Shown here: positions 52,820-61,945 of the stretch, piece after piece
Layout of the letters: each line of letters starts with the position of its first letter
Numbering within the stretch: position 1 is the stretch's first letter
Made by a program: the position numbers and the translations under genes
Assembly (NCBI RefSeq): GCF_016900095.1
Contig: NZ_JACJJP010000011.1
Span: 1 to 64,000 of the forward strand
From: Gemmiger formicilis
GTDB lineage: Bacteria; Bacillota; Clostridia; Oscillospirales; Ruminococcaceae
Length of the DNA: 64,000 nt
Direction: 5' to 3'
The notes under the pieces: generated by a model
What the model saw: only the letters and a program-made list of their open reading frames with translations
What the model was told of the DNA's origin: nothing
Database searches by the model: none

Positions 52820-52848
52820 TTGACAGGGGGGCGGGGCCGTGGTAGAAT
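52820..52848 (+). promoter_or_regulatory. Promoter of the pyrimidine operon
   Basis: TTGACA (52820-52825) and TAGAAT (52843-52848) are spaced by 17 bases. The transcript would start near 52855, with the leader peptide about 48 nt downstream. Confidence 0.85.
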
Positions 52849-52902
52849 AAGAAAAATTATGCGAAACCCCCGCAAGGAATGTCAGAAAAAGGAGGCACAG
52901 TC

Positions 52903-52992
52903 ATGCAGTTCCGCTCGGCCCGAATGTCCAGCGCTCTGAATTTTGACGGTGCCGTGTTTTTTCCCGACACCGCGTGCGGGCGGTTCTTTTGA
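52903..52992 (+). CDS. Leader peptide of the pyrimidine operon
   Basis: A 29-codon frame starts at ATG 52903 with a strong AAAGGAGG site 8 bases upstream and ends at TGA 52990-52992. It codes MQFRSARMSSALNFDGAVFF, then PDTACGRFF, with Phe codons written as TTT runs (GTGTTTTTTCCC, TTCTTTTGA). The stop codon sits on the 5' arm of an intrinsic terminator. This is the geometry of the E. coli pyrBI leader, where low UTP makes polymerase pause at U-runs and lets the ribosome disrupt the terminator. No homology to that peptide is claimed beyond this design. Confidence 0.7.
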   Translation: MQFRSARMSSALNFDGAVFFPDTACGRFF

Positions 52993-53023
52993 CTTTTCCT
53001 CCATTGGGGAAAAGTTTTTTTTT
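52992..53023 (+). terminator. Attenuator terminator before pyrC
   Basis: ACTTTTCC (52992-52999) pairs with GGAAAAGT (53008-53015), extended by CC/GG across a bulge, and is followed by nine T (53015-53023). The first base belongs to the leader-peptide stop codon. pyrC starts 41 bases further on. Confidence 0.85.
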
Positions 53024-53063
53024 GCCCAAACGGGCCCAAAACCACCAAATGGGAGGCTGTATC

Positions 53064-54254
53064 ATGCTGATCCGCAATGCCAAGGATGCCAACGGCAGTG
53101 TCTGTGATGTCTGGGTCAAAGACGGCAAGATCGCGGCGCTGGGCGTCGGACTGCCCGCCGACCTGGACGCCGAGGTCATCGACGCCGCCGGGCTGACCAT
53201 CCTGCCCGCTTTCATCGACACCCACTGCCACTGGCGCACCCCCGGCCTGGAATACAAGGAGGACATCGCCACCGGTTCCGCCGCGGCCGCCGCGGGCGGG
53301 TACACCTTCGTCAACCTGATGCCCAACACCAAGCCGGTGTGCTCCACCCCGGAGATCGTCTACGCGGTGCAGAACAAGGCCAAGGAGATCGGCCTGTGCG
53401 ATGCCAACCAGACCGTGTCCATCACCAAGGACTTTGACGGCAAGACCATCGACCATCTGCTGACCCTGCCCGAGGACATCCGCTTCATCACCGAGGACGG
53501 CAACGGCGTCATGGACAACGCGGTCATGGCCCGGGTCTTTGCCATCGCCACCGAGCGGGGCCTTACCGTCATGTCCCACGCCGAGGACCGGGAGATCAGC
53601 CCCTGGGACTACCGCCTGGCCGAAAACATCGAGACGGTGCGCAACTGCCACCTGGCCGAGTACTACGGCACCCGGCTGCACATGTGCCACGTCTCCACCG
53701 CCGAGGCGGTGGACGCGGTGCGCCAGAGCCGCCGCAAGGGCGCCCGGGTCTCCTGCGAGGTCACCCCGCACCACCTGTGGTTCGACGACAAGCGCCTGCA
53801 ATATAAGGTGAACCCGCCCATCCGCACCGACAAGGACGTGAAAGCCCTGGTGGAGGCCATCAAGGACGGCACCGTCACCTGCATCGGCACCGACCACGCC
53901 CCCCACACCGCCGAGGAAAAGGCAAAGGGCGCCGCGGGCATGGTGGGGCTGGAAACCGCCTTTGCCGCCTGCTACACCAAGCTCTGCCGCATGGAGGGCC
54001 TGCCCCTGGAACTGCTGAGCTTCCTCATGAGCGCCGGCCCCGCCGCCGTAATGGGCCTGGCCGACCGAAAGGGTCTGCTGTGCCCCGGCTACGACGCCGA
54101 CCTGGTGCTGGTGGACATCGACCATATGTATACCGTGCACGCCGACAAGCTGCACAGCAAGAGCAAAAATACCCCCTTCGACGGCGAAAACCTGTACGGC
54201 CGCATCAAGATGACCGTCAAGGGCGGCAAGATCACCTATCGGAGCGAAGAGTAA
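53064..54254 (+). CDS. pyrC: Dihydroorotase
   Basis: This amidohydrolase closes carbamoyl-aspartate to dihydroorotate. The product has 396 residues. Metal ligands are the His pair in FIDTHCHWRTPGLEYKEDIA, His in MSHAED and MCHVST, and Asp in CIGTDHAPHTAEEKA. The usual D-x-H-x-H is D-T-H-C-H here. GGGAGG precedes ATG 53064; the longer upstream frame overlaps the attenuator. It is the first gene of the operon with pyrF, pyrK, pyrD, pyrE, carA and carB. pyrB (aspartate carbamoyltransferase) is missing from the window. Confidence 0.94.
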   Translation: MLIRNAKDANGSVCDVWVKDGKIAALGVGLPADLDAEVIDAAGLTILPAFIDTHCHWRTPGLEYKEDIATGSAAAAAGGYTFVNLMPNTKPVCSTPEIVYAVQNKAKEIGLCDANQTVSITKDFDGKTIDHLLTLPEDIRFITEDGNGVMDNAVMARVFAIATERGLTVMSHAEDREISPWDYRLAENIETVRNCHLAEYYGTRLHMCHVSTAEAVDAVRQSRRKGARVSCEVTPHHLWFDDKRLQYKVNPPIRTDKDVKALVEAIKDGTVTCIGTDHAPHTAEEKAKGAAGMVGLETAFAACYTKLCRMEGLPLELLSFLMSAGPAAVMGLADRKGLLCPGYDADLVLVDIDHMYTVHADKLHSKSKNTPFDGENLYGRIKMTVKGGKITYRSEE

Positions 54255-54268
54255 GGAGGCAAATTCCC

Positions 54269-55135
54269 ATGACCAATATGGATAAACTGTATGCCAGCGT
54301 GGCCGCCAACGGTCCCGTCTGCGTGGGCCTGGACACCGAACTGAGCTACCTGCCCGAATCCGCCGTGGATTCCACCAAGACGGCGGGGGAGAACGTGGTG
54401 GCCTACAACCGCGCCCTGATCGACGCCACCAAGTCCGCCGCGGGCTGCTACAAGGTGCAGATCGCCTACTATGAATCCCTGGGCCTGGACGGTATGCGCG
54501 CCTACGCCGAAACCCTGCGCATGGTGCGGGAGACCGGCCTGCCGGTCATCGCCGACATCAAGCGCGGCGACATTGCCAAGACCGCCGAAATGTATGCCAA
54601 GGCCCATTTCACTGGCGACTTCGAAGCCGACCTGATCACCCTGGCCCCCTACATGGGCCTGGATTCCATCAGCCCCTATCTGCCTTACTGCAAGGACCAG
54701 GGCAAGGGCGTGTTTGTGCTCTGCCGCACCTCCAACCCCGGCGCCAAGGACTTTGAATACCAGAAACTGGCCGACGGCCGCCACGTCTACGACCTGGTGG
54801 GGGACAGCATCTCCGCCCTGGGCCAGGACTACATGGGCGAAACCGGCTACACCAGCCTGGGCCTGGTCATCGGCGGCACCCACACCGAGGAAGCTTCCGC
54901 CATCCGGGCCGCCTATAAAAACACCTTCTTCCTGATCCCCGGCTACGGTGCCCAGGGCGGCAAGGCCGCCGACATCGCCCGCTACCTGAACAAGGGCAAC
55001 GGCGGTGTGGTCAATTCCAGCCGCGGCATCCTGCTGGCCTGGAAGAAGCAGCCCGGTGTGGATTACGCCGAGGCCGCCTATAATGAATGTGTCCGCATGA
55101 GGGAGGATATCCAGAGTGAGTGCGATAAACTGTAA
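54269..55135 (+). CDS. pyrF: Orotidine 5'-phosphate decarboxylase (type 2)
   Basis: This enzyme makes UMP from OMP, the last step of the pathway. The 288-residue protein is of the longer type 2 subfamily. The catalytic K-D-K array is in IADIKRGDIAKTAEMYA, and VIGGTHTEEA, LIPGYGAQGG and NSSRGILLAW follow. AAGGAGG precedes ATG 54269. It is followed by pyrK, whose GTG start lies inside its last codons (20-nt overlap), so the two are translationally coupled. Confidence 0.95.
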   Translation: MTNMDKLYASVAANGPVCVGLDTELSYLPESAVDSTKTAGENVVAYNRALIDATKSAAGCYKVQIAYYESLGLDGMRAYAETLRMVRETGLPVIADIKRGDIAKTAEMYAKAHFTGDFEADLITLAPYMGLDSISPYLPYCKDQGKGVFVLCRTSNPGAKDFEYQKLADGRHVYDLVGDSISALGQDYMGETGYTSLGLVIGGTHTEEASAIRAAYKNTFFLIPGYGAQGGKAADIARYLNKGNGGVVNSSRGILLAWKKQPGVDYAEAAYNECVRMREDIQSECDKL

Positions 55136-55901
55136 GGTCAGTGTGCTGGCACAGGAAACGGTGGCGCCGGACATCCGCCGCCTGACCGTGTCCTGGGAGG
55201 ATCAGCGCCCGGAATTCATGCCCCACGCAGGCCAGTTCTATATGCTGCGCTGCTGGGCGGCCGATGAGGCCCCCGTGCTCTCCCGCCCCATCAGCGTCCA
55301 CGATGCGAGTACGGAGCATGATACCATCACCTTTTTGTATCAGGTCAAGGGCCAGGGCACCGAGAAGCTGGCCGCCCTGAAGTCAGGGGACACCCTGTCC
55401 CTCACCGGCCCCTGCGGCAACGGCTTTGATGTGGCCGCAGCCGCCAAGAGCGGCACCGGCCGGGTGGCCGTGGTGGGCGGCGGCATCGGCACCGCGCCCC
55501 TGCTGCTCCTCTGCAAGGAGCTGGCCGCCGCCGGCGCCAAGCCGGAACTGTATGTGGGCTTCCGGGATGAGCCCTACGGGCTGGAAGAATTCCTGCCCTA
55601 CTGCGCCGCTGTCAGCGTAGCCACCGATTCCGGTGCTGTGGGCTACCACGGCCTGGTCACCGGCATTCTGCATCCCGAAAACTTCGACCTGGTCCTGGCC
55701 TGCGGCCCCAACGTGATGATGAAAGGTGTGTACAAGCTCTGTGCGGAGCACAACACCCCCTGCATCGTCAGCCTGGAACGCAAGATGGCCTGCGGCCTGG
55801 GTGCCTGCCTGGGCTGCACCTGCATGACCAAGGTGGGACCGCGCACCGTCTGCAAGGACGGCCCGGTCTTTGCTGCTGAGGAGGTGTTTGACCTTGACTA
55901 A
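55116..55901 (+). CDS. pyrK: Dihydroorotate dehydrogenase electron-transfer subunit
   Basis: This flavin and iron-sulfur partner of class 1B PyrD passes electrons to NAD. The 261-residue protein has LSRPISVHDA (FAD), VAVVGGGIGTAPLLLL (NAD) and a C-terminal 2Fe-2S cluster motif ERKMACGLGACLGCTCMTKV with four Cys, the last a little further on (VCKDGPVF). The start is GTG 55116 with GGGAGG 9 bases upstream. It overlaps pyrF by 20 nt and pyrD by 8 nt. Confidence 0.95.
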   Translation: MSAINCKVSVLAQETVAPDIRRLTVSWEDQRPEFMPHAGQFYMLRCWAADEAPVLSRPISVHDASTEHDTITFLYQVKGQGTEKLAALKSGDTLSLTGPCGNGFDVAAAAKSGTGRVAVVGGGIGTAPLLLLCKELAAAGAKPELYVGFRDEPYGLEEFLPYCAAVSVATDSGAVGYHGLVTGILHPENFDLVLACGPNVMMKGVYKLCAEHNTPCIVSLERKMACGLGACLGCTCMTKVGPRTVCKDGPVFAAEEVFDLD

Positions 55902-56811
55902 TGTGGATCTGCATGTGGACCTGCTGGGTAAGCGTCTGGCCAGCCCGGTCATTGCGGCCTCCGGCACCTTCGGCTTCGGCCCCGAGTACGCCGACATCCA
56001 GGACCTGCGGGTTCTGGGCGGCATCTCCGGCAAGGGCCTGACCCTCAACGGCCAGCCCGGTAACCCCGGCGAGCGCCTGTACGAGACCCCCTCCGGCCTG
56101 ATGAACTCCATCGGCCTGCAGAACCCTGGCGTGGCCCACTTCATCGAGCATGAACTGCCCGCCATGAAGACCCTGGGCACCACCGTCTGGGCCAACCTGG
56201 GCGGCCACACCATCGAGGAGAACGTGGAAGGCGTCCGGATGCTGTGCGAGGCGGGCATCGACTTCCTGGAACTGAACATCAGCTGTCCCAACGTCAAGCA
56301 GGGCGGTTTGGCCTTCGGCATCCGTGCCGCCGACGCTTCCGAGGTGGTGGCGGCGGTGCGCAAGGTCTGCACCGTGCCCCTGGTGGTCAAGCTCAGCCCC
56401 CAGGCCGAGAACCTGACCGAGATGTGCAAGGCGGTGGAAGCCGCCGGCGCCGACGGCATCAGCCTGTGCAACACCTTCCAGGCCTGCGCCATTGACCTGG
56501 AGCGCCGCAAGCCGGTGTTCGCCAACACTTTCGCGGGGCTTTCCGGCCCGGCGGTGCGCCCCATTGCCCTGCGCATGGTCTGGCAGGCGGTGGGCGCCGT
56601 GAACATCCCGGTCATCGGGCTGGGCGGCATCACCACCGGCAAGGACGCCCTGGAATTCATCATGGCCGGTGCTGCCGCCGTGCAGGTGGGCACCGCCAAC
56701 TTCCTGGATCCCTGCGCCTGCACCCGCATCGTGGCCGAAATGGCCGACTGGATGCAGGCCCACGGGGTGCACAGCCTGGACGAGATCCGCGGCTGTGCCC
56801 GGGCAAACTGA
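55894..56811 (+). CDS. pyrD: Dihydroorotate dehydrogenase, class 1B catalytic subunit
   Basis: This enzyme oxidises dihydroorotate to orotate. The 305-residue product has the class 1B active-site Cys in ELNISCPNVKQGG, with PVIAASGTFGFGPEYAD and IGLGGITTGKDALEFIMAGA elsewhere. The start appears to be TTG 55894, nine bases after AGGAGG and overlapping the pyrK stop; no ATG is available near the conserved N-terminus. GTG 55903 is the alternative. With PyrK it forms the NAD-dependent heterotetramer. Confidence 0.95.
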   Translation: MTNVDLHVDLLGKRLASPVIAASGTFGFGPEYADIQDLRVLGGISGKGLTLNGQPGNPGERLYETPSGLMNSIGLQNPGVAHFIEHELPAMKTLGTTVWANLGGHTIEENVEGVRMLCEAGIDFLELNISCPNVKQGGLAFGIRAADASEVVAAVRKVCTVPLVVKLSPQAENLTEMCKAVEAAGADGISLCNTFQACAIDLERRKPVFANTFAGLSGPAVRPIALRMVWQAVGAVNIPVIGLGGITTGKDALEFIMAGAAAVQVGTANFLDPCACTRIVAEMADWMQAHGVHSLDEIRGCARAN

Positions 56812-56954: not shown

Positions 56955-57551
56955 ATGGCAAGAGATGCAAAAGAAATTCTGAAGGAATGCGGCGCTTTTC
57001 TGGAAGGTCACTTCCTTCTGTCCAGCGGCCGCCACTCCGGGGCTTACTGCCAGATGGCCTATCTGCAGCAGTACCCGGACAAGTGCGCCGAGGTCATGGC
57101 TCCGGTGGCCGAAAAGCTGAAGGAGATGGATGTGGACCTGTTCGTGGGTCCCGCCATGGGCGGCATCGTCTATGCCTATGAGCTGGGCCGTCAGTGCGGC
57201 AAGCCCGCCATCTTCACCGAGCGCGTGGACAACGTCATGACCCTCAAGCGCTTCCAGATCAAGCCCGGCACCCGCTGCATCATCGCCGAAGACGTGGTCA
57301 CCACCGGCGTGTCCAGCCTGGAAACCAAGCGGGTCATTGAGGAAGCCGGCGGCATCTGCCTGGGCATCGTCTGCGTGGTGGACCGCACCACCGCCGCTGC
57401 GCCCTCTCCCATTCCCATCCTGGCCAGCGCCCTGAAGCTGGAACTGCCCAACTACGCGCCTGACGAATGCCCCATCTGCAAGGAAGGCAAACTGCCCCTG
57501 GTTCACCTGGGCAGCCGCAAGATGAAGGAACAGGCAAAGCAGAAGCTGTAA
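56955..57551 (+). CDS. pyrE: Orotate phosphoribosyltransferase
   Basis: This enzyme joins orotate to PRPP to give OMP. The 198-residue protein has the PRPP-binding motif RCIIAEDVVTTGVSSLET and the N-terminal GHFLLSSGRHSGAYCQ loop, with DLFVGPAMGGIVYAYELG and IFTERVDNVMTLKRF between. GGAGG precedes ATG 56955. The 143-bp gap from pyrD is the largest in the operon and carries a likely internal promoter, so pyrE-carAB may be made independently of the attenuator. Confidence 0.95.
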   Translation: MARDAKEILKECGAFLEGHFLLSSGRHSGAYCQMAYLQQYPDKCAEVMAPVAEKLKEMDVDLFVGPAMGGIVYAYELGRQCGKPAIFTERVDNVMTLKRFQIKPGTRCIIAEDVVTTGVSSLETKRVIEEAGGICLGIVCVVDRTTAAAPSPIPILASALKLELPNYAPDECPICKEGKLPLVHLGSRKMKEQAKQKL

Positions 57552-57572: not shown

Positions 57573-58703
57573 ATGCAGGCATATCTGATTTTGGCAAACG
57601 GGACGGTGCTCACCGGCAAAAGCATCGGCGCCGAAGGCACCACCGTGGGCGAGGTCGTGTTCGCCACCGGCATGGTCGGCTTTCAGGAAACCCTGACCGA
57701 CCCCAGCTACTACGGCCAGATCATCACCCAGACCTACCCGCTGATCGGCAACTACGGCATGAACAGCGAAGATATGGAAAGTTCCCGCATCTGGGCGCGG
57801 GGGTACATCGTGCGCGAAGCCTGCACGGCCCCCAGCAACTTCCGCTGCGAGATGACCCTGGACACTTTCCTGAAAAAGAACAACATCATCGGCATTGAGG
57901 GCATCGACACCCGCAGCCTGACCCGTACTCTGCGGGAGAGCGGCGTCATGAACGGCGCCATCACCACCGAGTTCGACCCCAAGGCCGAGCCGGAAAAGCT
58001 GGCCGAACTCATGCCCGCCATTCAGGGCTATGCGGTCACCCAGGCGGTGAAAACCACCACCTGTGCCCAGCCCAAGACCTTTGAACCCACCGCCGACCCC
58101 AAGGACGGCGGTCCGGTGCTCCATGTGGCCCTGCTGGACCTGGGCTGCAAGAACAACATCGTGCGCTGCCTGCAGAAGCGGGGCTGCCGCGTCACCGTTC
58201 TGCCCGGCACCACCACCCCCGAGGAGCTGGCCGCCCTCAAGCCGGACGGTCTGATGCTGTCCAACGGCCCCGGCGATCCGGCGGAAAACACCGAGATCAT
58301 CTCGAACATCCGCAAGATGCTGGACACCGGCATCCCGGCTTTCGGCATCTGCCTGGGCCATCAGCTCACCGCCCTGGCCGCCGGCGCCAAGACCAGCAAG
58401 ATGAAGTACGGCCACCGTGGTGCCAACCAGCCGGTCACCGACTTTGCCACCGGCCGCACCTTCATCACCAGCCAGAACCACGGCTATGCCGTGCTGGGCG
58501 GCACCCTGCCCGAAGGTGTGGGCCGGGTGAGCCATGTGAACGCCAACGACAAGACCTGCGAGGGCGTGGAATACCTGCAGTGGAACTGCTTCACCGTGCA
58601 GTTCCACCCCGAGGCCAGCGGCGGTCCCCGGGACACCGAGTTCCTGTTTGACCGGTTCATCCAGAACATCCGCCGCATCAATCGTGTTAAAGGAGGGCTG
58701 TAA
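57573..58703 (+). CDS. carA: Carbamoyl-phosphate synthase small subunit
   Basis: This glutamine amidotransferase subunit supplies ammonia to CarB. The 376-residue protein has a C-terminal class I triad: Cys in AFGICLGHQLTALAAGA, then His and Glu in VQFHPEASGGPRDTEFLFD. The N-terminal half has FATGMVGFQETLTDPSYYGQ. The ribosome site before ATG 57573 is GCGAGGC, which is modest. It lies 21 bp after pyrE and 2 bp before carB. The carAB pair here probably feeds both pyrimidine and arginine synthesis. Confidence 0.96.
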   Translation: MQAYLILANGTVLTGKSIGAEGTTVGEVVFATGMVGFQETLTDPSYYGQIITQTYPLIGNYGMNSEDMESSRIWARGYIVREACTAPSNFRCEMTLDTFLKKNNIIGIEGIDTRSLTRTLRESGVMNGAITTEFDPKAEPEKLAELMPAIQGYAVTQAVKTTTCAQPKTFEPTADPKDGGPVLHVALLDLGCKNNIVRCLQKRGCRVTVLPGTTTPEELAALKPDGLMLSNGPGDPAENTEIISNIRKMLDTGIPAFGICLGHQLTALAAGAKTSKMKYGHRGANQPVTDFATGRTFITSQNHGYAVLGGTLPEGVGRVSHVNANDKTCEGVEYLQWNCFTVQFHPEASGGPRDTEFLFDRFIQNIRRINRVKGGL

Positions 58704-58705
58704 GA

Positions 58706-61700
58706 ATGCCGAAAGACCCGAAAATCAAGAAGGTAATGGTCATCGGCTCCGGCCCCATCATCATCGGCCAGGCCGCCGAATTCGACTATTCCGGTACCCA
58801 GGCCTGCCGCGCGCTGAAGAGCGAGGGCATTGAGACGGTGCTGGTCAACTCCAACCCGGCCACCATTATGACCGATCCCGACATCGCCGACCATGTGTAT
58901 ATCGAGCCCCTCACCGCCGAGGTGGTGGAGCGCATCATCGAGAAGGAAAAGCCCGACGCCATCCTGCCCAACCTGGGCGGCCAGATGGGCCTGAACCTGT
59001 CCATGGAACTGGCCCGCAGCGGCTTCCTGGACCGTTCCGGCGTGCGGCTGCTGGCCTGCCGTCCGGACACCATCGATCGCGCCGAGGACCGCCAGCTGTT
59101 CAAGGACACCATGGAGAAGCTGCACCAGCCCATCGTGCCTTCCAAGGTGGTGGAAGAGCTGGAGGACGCCGTGGAATATGCCGCCACCATCGGCTACCCG
59201 GTCATCGTCCGTCCCGCCTTCACCATGGGCGGCACCGGCGGCGGCATCTGCGAGGACGAGGAGAAGCTGCGGGAAATCGCCACCAACGGCCTGCGCCTGT
59301 CGCCCATCACCCAGATCCTGGTGGAAAAGTGCATCGCCGGCTGGAAGGAAATCGAATACGAGGTCATGCGTGACTCCAAGGGCAACGTGATCACCGTCTG
59401 CAACATGGAGAACCTGGACCCCGTGGGCGTGCACACCGGCGATTCCATCGTCGTGGCCCCCAGCCAGACCCTGTCCGACAAGGAATACCAGATGCTGCGC
59501 ACCGCCGCCCTGGACATCATCACCGAGCTGGGCATCGAAGGCGGCTGCAACTGCCAGTTTGCCCTCAAGCCGGACAGCTTTGAATACGCGGTCATCGAGG
59601 TCAACCCCCGTGTGTCCCGTTCTTCCGCCCTGGCCTCCAAGGCCACCGGCTATCCCATCGCCAAGGTGGCCACCAAGATCGCCCTGGGCTACACCCTGGA
59701 CGAGATCACCAACGATGTCACCGGCGAGACCTGTGCCTGCTTCGAGCCCGCCCTGGACTACGTGGTGGTCAAGTATCCCAAGTGGCCCTTTGACAAGTTC
59801 GTCTATGCGGACAAGTCCCTGGGCACCCAGATGATGGCCACCGGCGAAGTCATGGCCATCGGCAACAACTTCGAGCACGCCATGATGAAGGCGGTCTCCT
59901 CCATCGAGCTGGGCCTGGACACCCTGACCCTGCCCGATTTCGAGAAGCTCTCCACCGAGGAGATCATCGAGCACCTGCATGTGCAGGACTCCGAGCGCGC
60001 CTTCTGTGTCTATGAAGCCCTCAAGCGGGGTGTGGACCACAAGGTCATCTACGACATCACCAAGATCGACTGGTGGTTCCTGGACAAGATGCAGCACCTG
60101 GCCAACCTGGAAATGGGCCTGAAGCAGGGCGAGCTCACCCGCGAAAAGTATCTGGAAGCCAAAAAGTACGGCTTCCTGGACAAGACCATCCTGCGCCTGT
60201 CCGGCGCTTCCGAACTGCCGGTGAAGGACCTGCACGCCGGCTTCAAGATGGTGGATACCTGCGCCGCGGAATTTGCCGCCCGCACCCCCTACTTCTACTC
60301 CACCTACGACGAGGACAACGAGGCCGCCGGCTTCATCGCCGACCACAGCGATAAGACCCGCAAGAAGGTGCTGGTCTTCGGTTCCGGCCCCATCCGCATC
60401 GGCCAGGGCATCGAATTCGACTACTGCTCGGTCCACGCGGTGTGGACGCTGAAAAAGCATGGCTGCGAGGCCATTCTGGTCAACAACAACCCCGAGACCG
60501 TCTCCACCGACTTCGACACCGGCGACCGTCTGTACTTCGACCCCCTGAACCCCGAGAGCGTGGACAACGTCATCGCCACCGAGAAGCCCGACGCCTGCCT
60601 GGTGCAGTTCGGCGGCCAGACCGCCATCAAGCTGGCCAAGCATATGGATGACATCGGCCTGCCCATCCTGGGCACCCCCGCCGACGCCATCGACGAGGCC
60701 GAGGACCGGGAACGCTTTGACGAGCTGCTGGAGCGCTGCGGCATCCCCCGTCCCGAGGGCCGTACCGTCTTCACCCTGGACGAAGCCCTCAAGGCCGCCG
60801 AGGAGGTGGGCTATCCCGTTCTTATGCGTCCGTCCTACGTGCTGGGCGGCCAGAACATGATCGTGGCCTACAACTCCGCCGACGTGGTGGAGTACATGGG
60901 CGTCATCACCGCCCACGTGGATATGTCCCACCCCGTGCTGATGGACAAGTACATCTACGGCACCGAGTGCGAAGTGGATGCTATCTGCGACGGCGAGGAT
61001 TACCTGGTGCCTGGCATCATGGAGCAGATCGAGCGTACCGGTGTGCATTCCGGCGACTCCATCTGCGTCTACCCGCCCTACGATTTCCCCCAGAGCGTCA
61101 TTGATACCCTGGTGGATTACACCGGCCGTTTCGCCCGGGAACTGAAGGTGGTGGGCCTGGTCAACGTGCAGTATGCGGTGCAGGACGGCAAGGTCTATGT
61201 CATCGAGGTCAACCCCCGTTCCTCCCGTACCGTGCCCTATATCAGCAAGGTCACCGGCGTGCCCATGGTGGATTTGGCCGTGCGCTGCACCCTGGGCGAA
61301 AAGCTCAAGGATATGGGCTACGGCACCGGCCTGTGGCGCGGCGGCCAGAGCCCCTACTACGCGGTCAAGGTGCCGGTGTACAGCTTCCTGAAGCTGCACG
61401 GCGTGGATACCATGCTGGGCCCCGAGATGAAGTCCACTGGTGAGGTGCTGGGCATTGCCCCCACCTTCCACGAAGCCATGATGAAGGGCCTGGTGGCTGC
61501 CGGCTACCAGTTCAAGACCCCCGGCCCCGGTTCCTGCGTCATCATCTCGGTGAAGGACGCGGACAAGAAGGAAGCTTCCGAACTGGCCTGGAAACTGCAT
61601 GATTACGGCTACAAGATCTACGGCACCCCCGGCACCGCCCGGTACCTGAACAGCCAGATGATCCCCTGCAGCGTGGTGCGCCAGGTCAGCGGCGAACGTC

Positions 61701-61945
61701 CCAATGCCATCGACCTGCTGGAAAGCGGTCTGGTGGATTATATCATCTCCACCAGCCCCCACGGCCGTGACCCCCACCGGGATTCGGTCAAGTTCCGCCG
61801 CAAGGCCACCGAGCTTTCCATCCCCTGCATCACCGCCCTGGACACTGCCCGGGTGCTGGTGGACGCGCTGCGCGGCGACCACGACATCAGCAAGATGGAA
61901 CTGGTGGATATTGCCACTTTGCACCGGGATCCTTTGGCAAAATAA
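58706..61945 (+). CDS. carB: Carbamoyl-phosphate synthase large subunit
   Basis: The 1079-residue protein is complete, with two ATP-grasp halves. The first (about 1-400) has MVIGSGPIIIGQAAEFDYSG and NPRVSRSSALASKATGYPIA; the second (about 550-935) repeats FGSGPIRIGQGIEFDYCSVH and NPRSSRTVPYISKVTGVPMV. The last 140 residues form the MGS-like allosteric domain (YGTPGTARYLNSQ), the usual site for UMP and ornithine control. AAAGGAGGG precedes ATG 58706. It is the last gene of the pyrimidine operon. Confidence 0.97.
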   Translation: MPKDPKIKKVMVIGSGPIIIGQAAEFDYSGTQACRALKSEGIETVLVNSNPATIMTDPDIADHVYIEPLTAEVVERIIEKEKPDAILPNLGGQMGLNLSMELARSGFLDRSGVRLLACRPDTIDRAEDRQLFKDTMEKLHQPIVPSKVVEELEDAVEYAATIGYPVIVRPAFTMGGTGGGICEDEEKLREIATNGLRLSPITQILVEKCIAGWKEIEYEVMRDSKGNVITVCNMENLDPVGVHTGDSIVVAPSQTLSDKEYQMLRTAALDIITELGIEGGCNCQFALKPDSFEYAVIEVNPRVSRSSALASKATGYPIAKVATKIALGYTLDEITNDVTGETCACFEPALDYVVVKYPKWPFDKFVYADKSLGTQMMATGEVMAIGNNFEHAMMKAVSSIELGLDTLTLPDFEKLSTEEIIEHLHVQDSERAFCVYEALKRGVDHKVIYDITKIDWWFLDKMQHLANLEMGLKQGELTREKYLEAKKYGFLDKTILRLSGASELPVKDLHAGFKMVDTCAAEFAARTPYFYSTYDEDNEAAGFIADHSDKTRKKVLVFGSGPIRIGQGIEFDYCSVHAVWTLKKHGCEAILVNNNPETVSTDFDTGDRLYFDPLNPESVDNVIATEKPDACLVQFGGQTAIKLAKHMDDIGLPILGTPADAIDEAEDRERFDELLERCGIPRPEGRTVFTLDEALKAAEEVGYPVLMRPSYVLGGQNMIVAYNSADVVEYMGVITAHVDMSHPVLMDKYIYGTECEVDAICDGEDYLVPGIMEQIERTGVHSGDSICVYPPYDFPQSVIDTLVDYTGRFARELKVVGLVNVQYAVQDGKVYVIEVNPRSSRTVPYISKVTGVPMVDLAVRCTLGEKLKDMGYGTGLWRGGQSPYYAVKVPVYSFLKLHGVDTMLGPEMKSTGEVLGIAPTFHEAMMKGLVAAGYQFKTPGPGSCVIISVKDADKKEASELAWKLHDYGYKIYGTPGTARYLNSQMIPCSVVRQVSGERPNAIDLLESGLVDYIISTSPHGRDPHRDSVKFRRKATELSIPCITALDTARVLVDALRGDHDISKMELVDIATLHRDPLAK

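What the first reader, a model, noticed from the sequence alone, without database searches (positions are those of the whole stretch)
52903..53023. Leader-peptide attenuator in front of the pyr operon
Seen: a 29-codon frame with a strong ribosome site, T-rich Phe codons, and a stop codon lying on the first base of an intrinsic terminator with nine T. Known: E. coli pyrBI uses exactly this coupling to sense UTP, while most Firmicutes use PyrR binding to RNA. Inference: this organism controls pyrC-carB by transcription-translation coupling. No PyrR gene lies in the window.
Basis: partly seen in the sequence, partly recalled or inferred. Interest (0 to 1): 0.75.

Follow-up and report, generated by a model that had tools for sequence, protein, structure and literature searches.

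The report
Ribosome-dependent pyrimidine switch in Gemmiger
In front of the pyrimidine-making genes of what is most likely a Gemmiger gut bacterium lies a tiny leader frame that ends exactly where a stop signal for transcription begins; its conserved design suggests that the cell senses UTP by whether a ribosome gets onto the RNA in time, and in the genomes compared it occurs only where the usual regulator, PyrR, was not found.

Summary
Observation confirmed: promoter, Shine-Dalgarno (SD) site, 29-codon frame and intrinsic terminator with nine T precede pyrC-F-K-D-E-carA-carB. The genus is most likely Gemmiger. The same leader was read in 33 genomes of this genus and 23 of other genera, before pyrC or, where it comes first, pyrB. 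The stop codon sits exactly at the foot of the terminator in 50 of 56 (TGA, TAA or TAG), within the terminator in 3, and beyond it in 1, as in E. coli pyrL. The peptide is not conserved; frame and U-richness are. Of 197 family genomes, 26 have the leader, 86 have PyrR, none both. New here: the SD segment and the U tract are complementary and coevolve (z -7.3, 0 of 5000 permutations; 11 control pairings |z|<1.9), though not in every genus; E. coli pyrL (one sequence) has a shorter such pairing. Best reading: a pyrBI-type, UTP-sensing, ribosome-dependent attenuator in Clostridia whose U tract both slows RNA polymerase and, once made, closes the leader's ribosome site. No expression data exist here; UTP sensing and the gate are inferred.

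The parts
52820..52848 (+). Promoter: TTGACA, 17 nt, TAGAAT, with TG before the -10; start of the transcript about 52855 (inferred)
   Evidence: consensus scan; a TTGAC/-10 pattern upstream of the leader start in 35 of 42 leaders
52885..52902 (+). SD strand of the SD/U-tract helix; SD core AGGAGG at 52890-52895
52903..52992 (+). Leader frame, 29 codons, ATG to TGA; peptide itself not conserved
52945..52963 (+). U tract (GACGGTGCCGTGTTTTTTC, six T at 52957-52962): presumed UTP-dependent pause region and partner strand of the SD
52991..53023 (+). Intrinsic terminator (attenuator); stem begins on the stop codon; nine T
53064..54254 (+). pyrC, dihydroorotase (SD GGGAGG 53051-53056), first gene of the operon
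   Evidence: TIGR00857 over cut-off
54269..55135 (+). pyrF, orotidine-5'-phosphate decarboxylase (start by inspection)
   Evidence: TIGR02127 over cut-off
55116..55901 (+). pyrK, dihydroorotate dehydrogenase electron transfer subunit (open frame; true start not settled)
   Evidence: NF000798 over cut-off
55870..56811 (+). pyrD, dihydroorotate dehydrogenase (open frame; true start not settled)
   Evidence: NF005574 over cut-off
56955..57551 (+). pyrE, orotate phosphoribosyltransferase (start by inspection)
   Evidence: TIGR01367 over cut-off
57573..58703 (+). carA, carbamoyl-phosphate synthase small subunit
   Evidence: TIGR01368 over cut-off
58706..61945 (+). carB, carbamoyl-phosphate synthase large subunit
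   Evidence: NF003671 over cut-off

Best explanation
A ribosome-dependent transcription attenuator that reads UTP. RNA polymerase starts near 52855 (inferred), makes the SD and start codon, then a U-rich stretch, then the terminator. If UTP is plentiful it runs through, the finished U tract pairs back onto the SD so that no ribosome can load, and the untouched terminator stops transcription before pyrC. If UTP is short it lingers in the U tract, the SD stays open, a ribosome loads and follows closely, and on reaching the stop codon at the foot of the terminator it covers the 5' arm, so polymerase reads on into pyrC-carB. Shown here: the parts, their conservation, the exact stop position, excess of T beyond what the peptide needs, SD/U-tract coevolution, no PyrR found. 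Inferred: translation of the frame, pausing, the UTP response, the gate, occlusion of the terminator by the ribosome.
For: Stop at the terminator foot in 50 of 56 leaders, using all three stop codons, and within (3) or beyond (1) the terminator in 4 more; the frame-free pick agrees in 48 of 56. In seven genomes with pyrB ahead of pyrC the leader stands before pyrB. With the peptide held fixed, codons of the last 14 positions are T-enriched over the window genome's codon usage, mean z 2.74, 17 of 18 genus leaders. SD x U-tract duplex: cognate -17.5 against permuted -13.5 (sd 0.55), z -7.3, 0 of 5000, n=31, one per clade as I grouped them; 11 control segment pairings |z|<1.9; GC-corrected z -6.9. 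Folded as growing transcripts, mean SD openness falls from about 0.45 to 0.22 while the U tract is made; in E. coli pyrL from 0.66 to 0. In E. coli, moving a stop codon from 28 to 5 bp before a terminator cut its efficiency from ~90% to <10% (PMC4824070, passages). Genome-wide stop-to-terminator spacing is E. coli-like (median 19 and 20 nt). PyrR and leader never co-occur in 197 family genomes.
Against: No expression, pausing or UTP data. fold_alignment on a MAFFT alignment of 21 leaders found no pairs at all (I think because the SD strand is out of register). The SD/U-tract pairing is weak or no better than with foreign partners in some genera (e.g. L038, L046, L048, L055, L058, L065-L067); 12 or more pairs are reached by 25 of 31 cognate but also by 61% of non-cognate duplexes. 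SD openness falls by more than 0.1 in only 19 of 31, and in the window's own leader it goes from 0.18 to 0.26 between the points compared. Some complementarity between the terminator's 5' arm and the upstream leader exists (mean z -0.88, 15 of 42 below -1.5), so an antiterminator is not wholly excluded. B. subtilis is thought to have mostly uncoupled transcription and translation (PMC7858274, passages).
Confidence: 0.65

Rival explanations
1. Plain pyrBI/pyrE mechanism: slow polymerase in the U tract lets an already loaded ribosome catch up and block the terminator; the SD/U-tract helix only prevents later, useless rounds of leader translation.
For: Same anatomy as E. coli pyrL; the parts serve it equally.
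Against: Does not need SD/U-tract coevolution, which is strong.
Confidence: 0.25
2. The leader peptide or its tRNAs are the sensor (nascent-chain arrest, or Phe starvation), as in tnaC or pheL (recalled).
For: GAVFFP-like residues recur in Gemmiger; Phe is 15.4% of genus leader codons against 3.9% in the genome.
Against: The peptide changes freely (nonsynonymous codon differences are 1.9 to 2.9 times the synonymous in three groups) and looks unrelated in other genera; T is enriched even at fixed peptide; the operon makes pyrimidines.
Confidence: 0.05
3. An unknown protein or ligand binds the leader RNA, as PyrR does elsewhere, and the frame is incidental.
For: Conserved GGTG..GTGTT.TTTCC sequence in Gemmiger; the leader without terminator folds somewhat better than shuffles, mean z -1.6; upstream leader and terminator 5' arm pair slightly better than shuffles, mean z -0.88, 15 of 42 below -1.5.
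Against: No Rfam match at the gathering score at the window's leader or in the leaders of 16 other loci; SD x 5' arm shows no coevolution, z 0.10; stop codon position held in 50 of 56.
Confidence: 0.04
4. An ordinary small gene with its own terminator, unrelated to pyr control.
For: Terminators next to stop codons do occur in this genome (18 of 136 within 8 nt).
Against: No promoter-like site between the terminator and pyrC; peptide not conserved; in 33 of 33 genus genomes with a model hit the main hit lies just upstream of pyrC; the stem starts at or before the end of the stop in only 3 of 136 terminators of this genome.
Confidence: 0.01

Closest known systems
E. coli pyrBI attenuator with leader gene pyrL
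   Same: Short leader frame with SD, U-rich tract coding for Phe and Pro, intrinsic terminator just before the first pyr gene; SD and U tract can pair (8 bp; SD-to-U stretch fold z -3.04); the T run is followed by GCCCA in both.
   Different: 44-codon pyrL runs through its terminator, while most leaders here stop at its foot (L074 runs through). Different phylum, other first gene. Sequence kinship was not tested. SD/U-tract pairing is longer in Gemmiger.
E. coli pyrE attenuator coupled to rph (recalled)
   Same: Stop codon a few nt before an attenuator, so the terminating ribosome blocks it.
   Different: There the upstream frame is a full gene; here a leader of 16-43 codons.
PyrR-dependent pyr attenuators of Bacillota
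   Same: Terminator in the leader of the pyr operon, same job.
   Different: No PyrR protein and no PyrR RNA found in this genome; 0 of 26 leader genomes have PyrR.
Ribosome-mediated attenuators of Bacillota, e.g. bmrCD of B. subtilis (start of abstract seen in the listing)
   Same: Leader translation decides termination in a Gram-positive.
   Different: Those respond to antibiotics that stall ribosomes (recalled); here nucleotide supply is the presumed signal.

Membership tests
pyrBI-type UTP attenuator | Short frame with ribosome site upstream of the terminator | tested here: met
   (translation itself inferred)
pyrBI-type UTP attenuator | Ribosome path reaches the terminator hairpin | tested here: met
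   stop at -3 in 50 of 56, -4 in 1, within the terminator in 3, beyond it in 1; -12 in 1
pyrBI-type UTP attenuator | U-rich stretch before the terminator, selected as nucleotide sequence | tested here: met
   profile; synonymous test, 17 of 18
pyrBI-type UTP attenuator | Termination rises with UTP | not testable with these tools
   needs in vitro or in vivo transcription
pyrBI-type UTP attenuator | Common descent with enterobacterial pyrL | not tested
PyrR attenuator | pyrR gene in the genome | tested here: not met
PyrR attenuator | PyrR-binding RNA (RF00515) in the leader | tested here: not met
   but the model also found nothing in four loci of PyrR genomes, so a weak negative
Amino-acid leader-peptide attenuator | Antiterminator pairing with the terminator's 5' arm | tested here: inconclusive
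   SD x 5' arm z 0.10, but whole upstream leader x 5' arm mean z -0.88, 15 of 42 below -1.5
Amino-acid leader-peptide attenuator | Conserved codons for the pathway's product | tested here: not met
   peptide varies; pathway makes pyrimidines

The most novel reading that the evidence does not exclude
The U tract is a two-in-one part: a UTP-dependent brake on RNA polymerase and the anti-SD strand that shuts the leader's ribosome site once it has been transcribed. UTP is thus read as the length of a window for translation initiation, a kinetic gate that does not need polymerase and ribosome to be coupled beforehand. It arose in Clostridia in place of PyrR and, on the evidence of one sequence, may be present in the textbook E. 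coli pyrBI leader too.
Probability: 0.45. Interest if true: 0.85.

Novelty: new variant of a known kind. Interest (0 to 1): 0.72.

Why it matters
It would bring UTP-sensing, translation-dependent attenuation to Clostridia, in a phylum whose models use PyrR and are said to uncouple transcription from translation, within a family where the two modes exclude each other in the sample. The SD/U-tract helix is a concrete, mutable element that makes the question of how the ribosome gets there in time testable, also in E. coli pyrBI. I saw no report of such a leader in Bacillota in the listings of searches (open-licence papers only; others showed 20 of 42, 20 of 38, 15 of 61 and 12 of 283 papers), nor in the passages of PMC2965389, a survey of attenuators, where 'pyrB', 'pyrC' and 'pyrimidine' do not occur in the main text.

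Tried and rejected
PyrR: the NF003549 hit in the own genome is an Hpt. Rfam at E<1 gave only a sub-threshold anti-hemB match, 18.4 bits against 49.5, taken as chance. A short hairpin around GGTG..CACC as pause hairpin: good in single leaders (L008, L014) but mean z only -0.64 over 49, 11 below -1.5; set aside. Consensus folding of the SD-to-U region gave no pairs; I did not hand-align it and rely on the permutation test. Model hits outside pyr: G148 (two), G000:C17, and G299 and G584 of other families are ordinary terminators or not at pyr genes by inspection; G014:C65 (E 0.004) was not inspected. A blastn search of plasmid records gave only pyrC coding matches, no leader.

Runaway-transcription test: gene purine content was meant as a proxy, but Rho was found in only 1 of 197 family genomes, so it is uninformative; medians: own 50.5%, leader genome G054 53.6%, PyrR genomes 53.2% and 51.6%, Heyndrickxia coagulans 54.7%, E. 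coli 51.4%. Stop-to-stem within 8 nt: own 18 of 136, G054 1 of 10, E. coli 3 of 25, PyrR genome G150 15 of 33, H. coagulans 14 of 42, but PyrR genome G217 0 of 6. So Gemmiger looks E. coli-like, yet a general leader-versus-PyrR contrast is not established. The gene and terminator finder is home-made and its samples are parts of genomes.

Rows dropped before counts: near-duplicate leaders were left out (49 of 56 kept; 42 of 56; 48 of 56, then 30, one per clade; 31); one search used 18 of 33 genus leaders for the synonymous test and 16 leaders in three groups for substitutions. Clades were assigned by hand. One search used a faulty terminator position and is superseded.

Full report
WHAT IS THERE. 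Window 52820-53064 holds a strong promoter, an SD, a 29-codon frame and an intrinsic terminator whose stem begins on the stop codon, followed after 40 nt by pyrC. Downstream lie pyrC, pyrF, pyrK, pyrD, pyrE, carA and carB, each over the cut-off of a family model. The genomes with the most similar pyrC (91-98% identity) are titled Gemmiger, one of them Faecalibacterium sp. UBA1360, so the genus is most likely Gemmiger (Bacillota, Clostridia, Oscillospiraceae). No promoter-like site lies between terminator and pyrC, so pyr transcription should have to pass the terminator.

CONSERVATION. Of 35 genomes of the genus 33 have pyrC, one of them split over two contigs; in all 33 the upstream DNA carries a stop codon exactly 3 nt before the terminator's CTTTTCC. 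A covariance model of 41 leaders rings in these 33 of 35 genomes, each time just upstream of pyrC, plus two weak stray hits. In the family sample (197 genomes) it rings in 27; G148 is an ordinary terminator, leaving 26 genomes of 16 genera. Of the 30 family genomes with pyrC of 50% identity or more, these 26 have the leader; it was not found in G149, G201 and G121 within 3.6 kb, and G207 offered only about 1 kb. In the order sample 10 of 394 genomes rang: 8 of the same family, and two of other families not at pyr genes; over 40 genomes the search uses stricter filters. In seven genomes where pyrB precedes pyrC, the leader stands before pyrB: it follows the operon's head, not the gene.

THE FRAME. 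Among 56 leaders (33 of the genus, 23 others) the stop lies at -3 in 50, -4 in 1, -12 in 1, inside the terminator in 3 and beyond it in 1 (L074, 43 codons). Stops are TGA 45, TAA 8, TAG 3; starts ATG 51, GTG 3, TTG 2. Changing the stop codon but not its place is what selection on a ribosome's halting point predicts. Without choosing the frame beforehand the result is 48 of 56 at -3/-4. The peptide is not kept: codon differences are 24 synonymous to 59 not, 29 to 84, and 46 to 86 in three groups, spread over codon positions. Openness alone is weak evidence (61% of shuffles open; other frames open in 41 of 84).

U-RICHNESS. T is 51% at -35..-31 and 55-79% from -10 to +4 of the terminator start. 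Holding the peptide fixed and drawing codons by the window genome's usage, T is in excess in 17 of 18 leaders, mean z 2.74. The longest T run alone is not unusual in most of them (same call). Phe codons in genus leaders are TTT 95, TTC 37, against 41% TTT in the genome. So T content itself seems selected.

SD AND U TRACT. The SD segment (20 nt before the start) and the segment -48..-18 of the terminator are complementary, e.g. window GAAAAAGGAGGCACAGTC with GACGGTGCCGTGTTTTTTC, L011 GGAAGGAGTGTGCCG with CGGCACAGTGTTCTTTCC. Shuffling the SD segment gives mean z -1.59, below -1.5 in 25 of 42. Permuting partners among 31 leaders, one per clade: cognate -17.49, permuted -13.48 (sd 0.55), z -7.3, 0 of 5000 as low; eleven other segment pairings gave z from -1.85 to +0.72. 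GC-corrected z is -6.9. It holds in the Gemmiger clades alone (11; 2 of 5000) and in the other genera alone (19; 0 of 5000). The signal peaks with the window -46..-22. Folded alone, the SD-to-U stretch closes this helix in the seven leaders tried (in L030 over part of the SD only) and in E. coli pyrL (z from -0.21 to -3.68). Along the growing transcript mean SD openness is 0.43-0.49 between -50 and -30 and 0.22 at -14; 24 of 31 end below 0.3 and 19 of 31 fall by more than 0.1; the window's own leader moves between 0.18 and 0.74 before and settles at 0.26. Against: no pairs in a consensus fold, and several genera whose own partner is no better than foreign ones.

HOW IT WORKS. In E. coli pyrL, polymerase pauses on the U-rich template at low UTP, giving a coupled ribosome time to prevent the terminator (PMC10135430, passages, which also speaks of a hairpin pause); another study finds the pyrL pause unaffected by NusA and unlikely to rely on RNA structure (PMC9291695, passages); tight coupling is said to be needed (PMC5021804, passages). 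A terminator close to a stop codon is repressed by the ribosome halting there (PMC4824070, passages). The parts here match. The SD/U-tract helix adds a second use of the same tract: transcribing it ends the time in which a ribosome can load. I hold translation-dependent attenuation at about 0.9 (0.65 with the gate, 0.25 without); both are inferences from sequence.

PYRR. NF003549 is over its cut-off in 86 of 197 family genomes, in several directly upstream of a distantly related pyrC (e.g. G150, G053, G047). Overlap with the 26 leader genomes is zero, and zero at genus level (61 and 16 genera of 125; hypergeometric 8e-8 and 8e-6, not corrected for relatedness). The window's type of pyrC is the less common in the family sample (30 of 158 genomes with a hit, at 50% identity or more), so enzyme and control may have changed together.

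COUPLING. B. subtilis is said to run polymerase ahead of ribosomes, with terminators a few nt after stop codons (PMC7858274, passages; see also PMC13323073, abstract, section 8 and passages). In 1.26 Mb of this genome terminators lie a median 19 nt after the stop (E. coli 20; H. coagulans 13; PyrR relative G150 12), 18 of 136 within 8 nt (3 of 25; 14 of 42; 15 of 33), but PyrR relative G217 has 0 of 6. The genome is thus compatible with coupling; the gate would need less of it.

VERDICT. Observation confirmed, interpretation supported and extended. New variant of a known kind.

Noticed in passing
family sample of 197 genomes: Rho (TIGR00767 over cut-off) was found in 1 of 197 genomes and not in the window's own; yet median gene purine content ranges from 50.5 to 53.6% among four genomes measured, so Rho avoidance does not obviously explain it here.
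   Followed up: partly
53015-53029 and E. coli L085 leader: The terminator's T run is followed by GCCCA both here and in E. coli pyrBI; by eye many relatives have GCCC there.
   Followed up: no
G150, G053, G047 and other PyrR genomes of the family: pyrR lies directly upstream of a pyrC only about 40% identical to the window's; Rfam's PyrR RNA model finds nothing in four loci of such genomes, so their leaders may bind PyrR through a diverged RNA.
   Followed up: partly
L065, L066, L067, L068, L069, L072, L074: Leader genera with pyrB first encode a pyrB whose C-terminus looks like the PyrI zinc domain fused on (by eye).
   Followed up: no
L011 (same contig as L187, Gemmiger formicilis), between terminator and pyrC: Terminator and pyrC are 218 nt apart, against 48-97 nt in the other 32 leaders measured; the extra DNA looks like an inverted repeat by eye.
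   Followed up: no
52849-52860: An A-run at the presumed transcription start is kept in form in relatives; start-site slippage was not examined.
   Followed up: no
OY725857.1 265866-266443 (plasmid collection): A 334,647-base record labelled Subdoligranulum variabile plasmid carries a stretch 71.5% identical to the window's pyrC.
   Followed up: no
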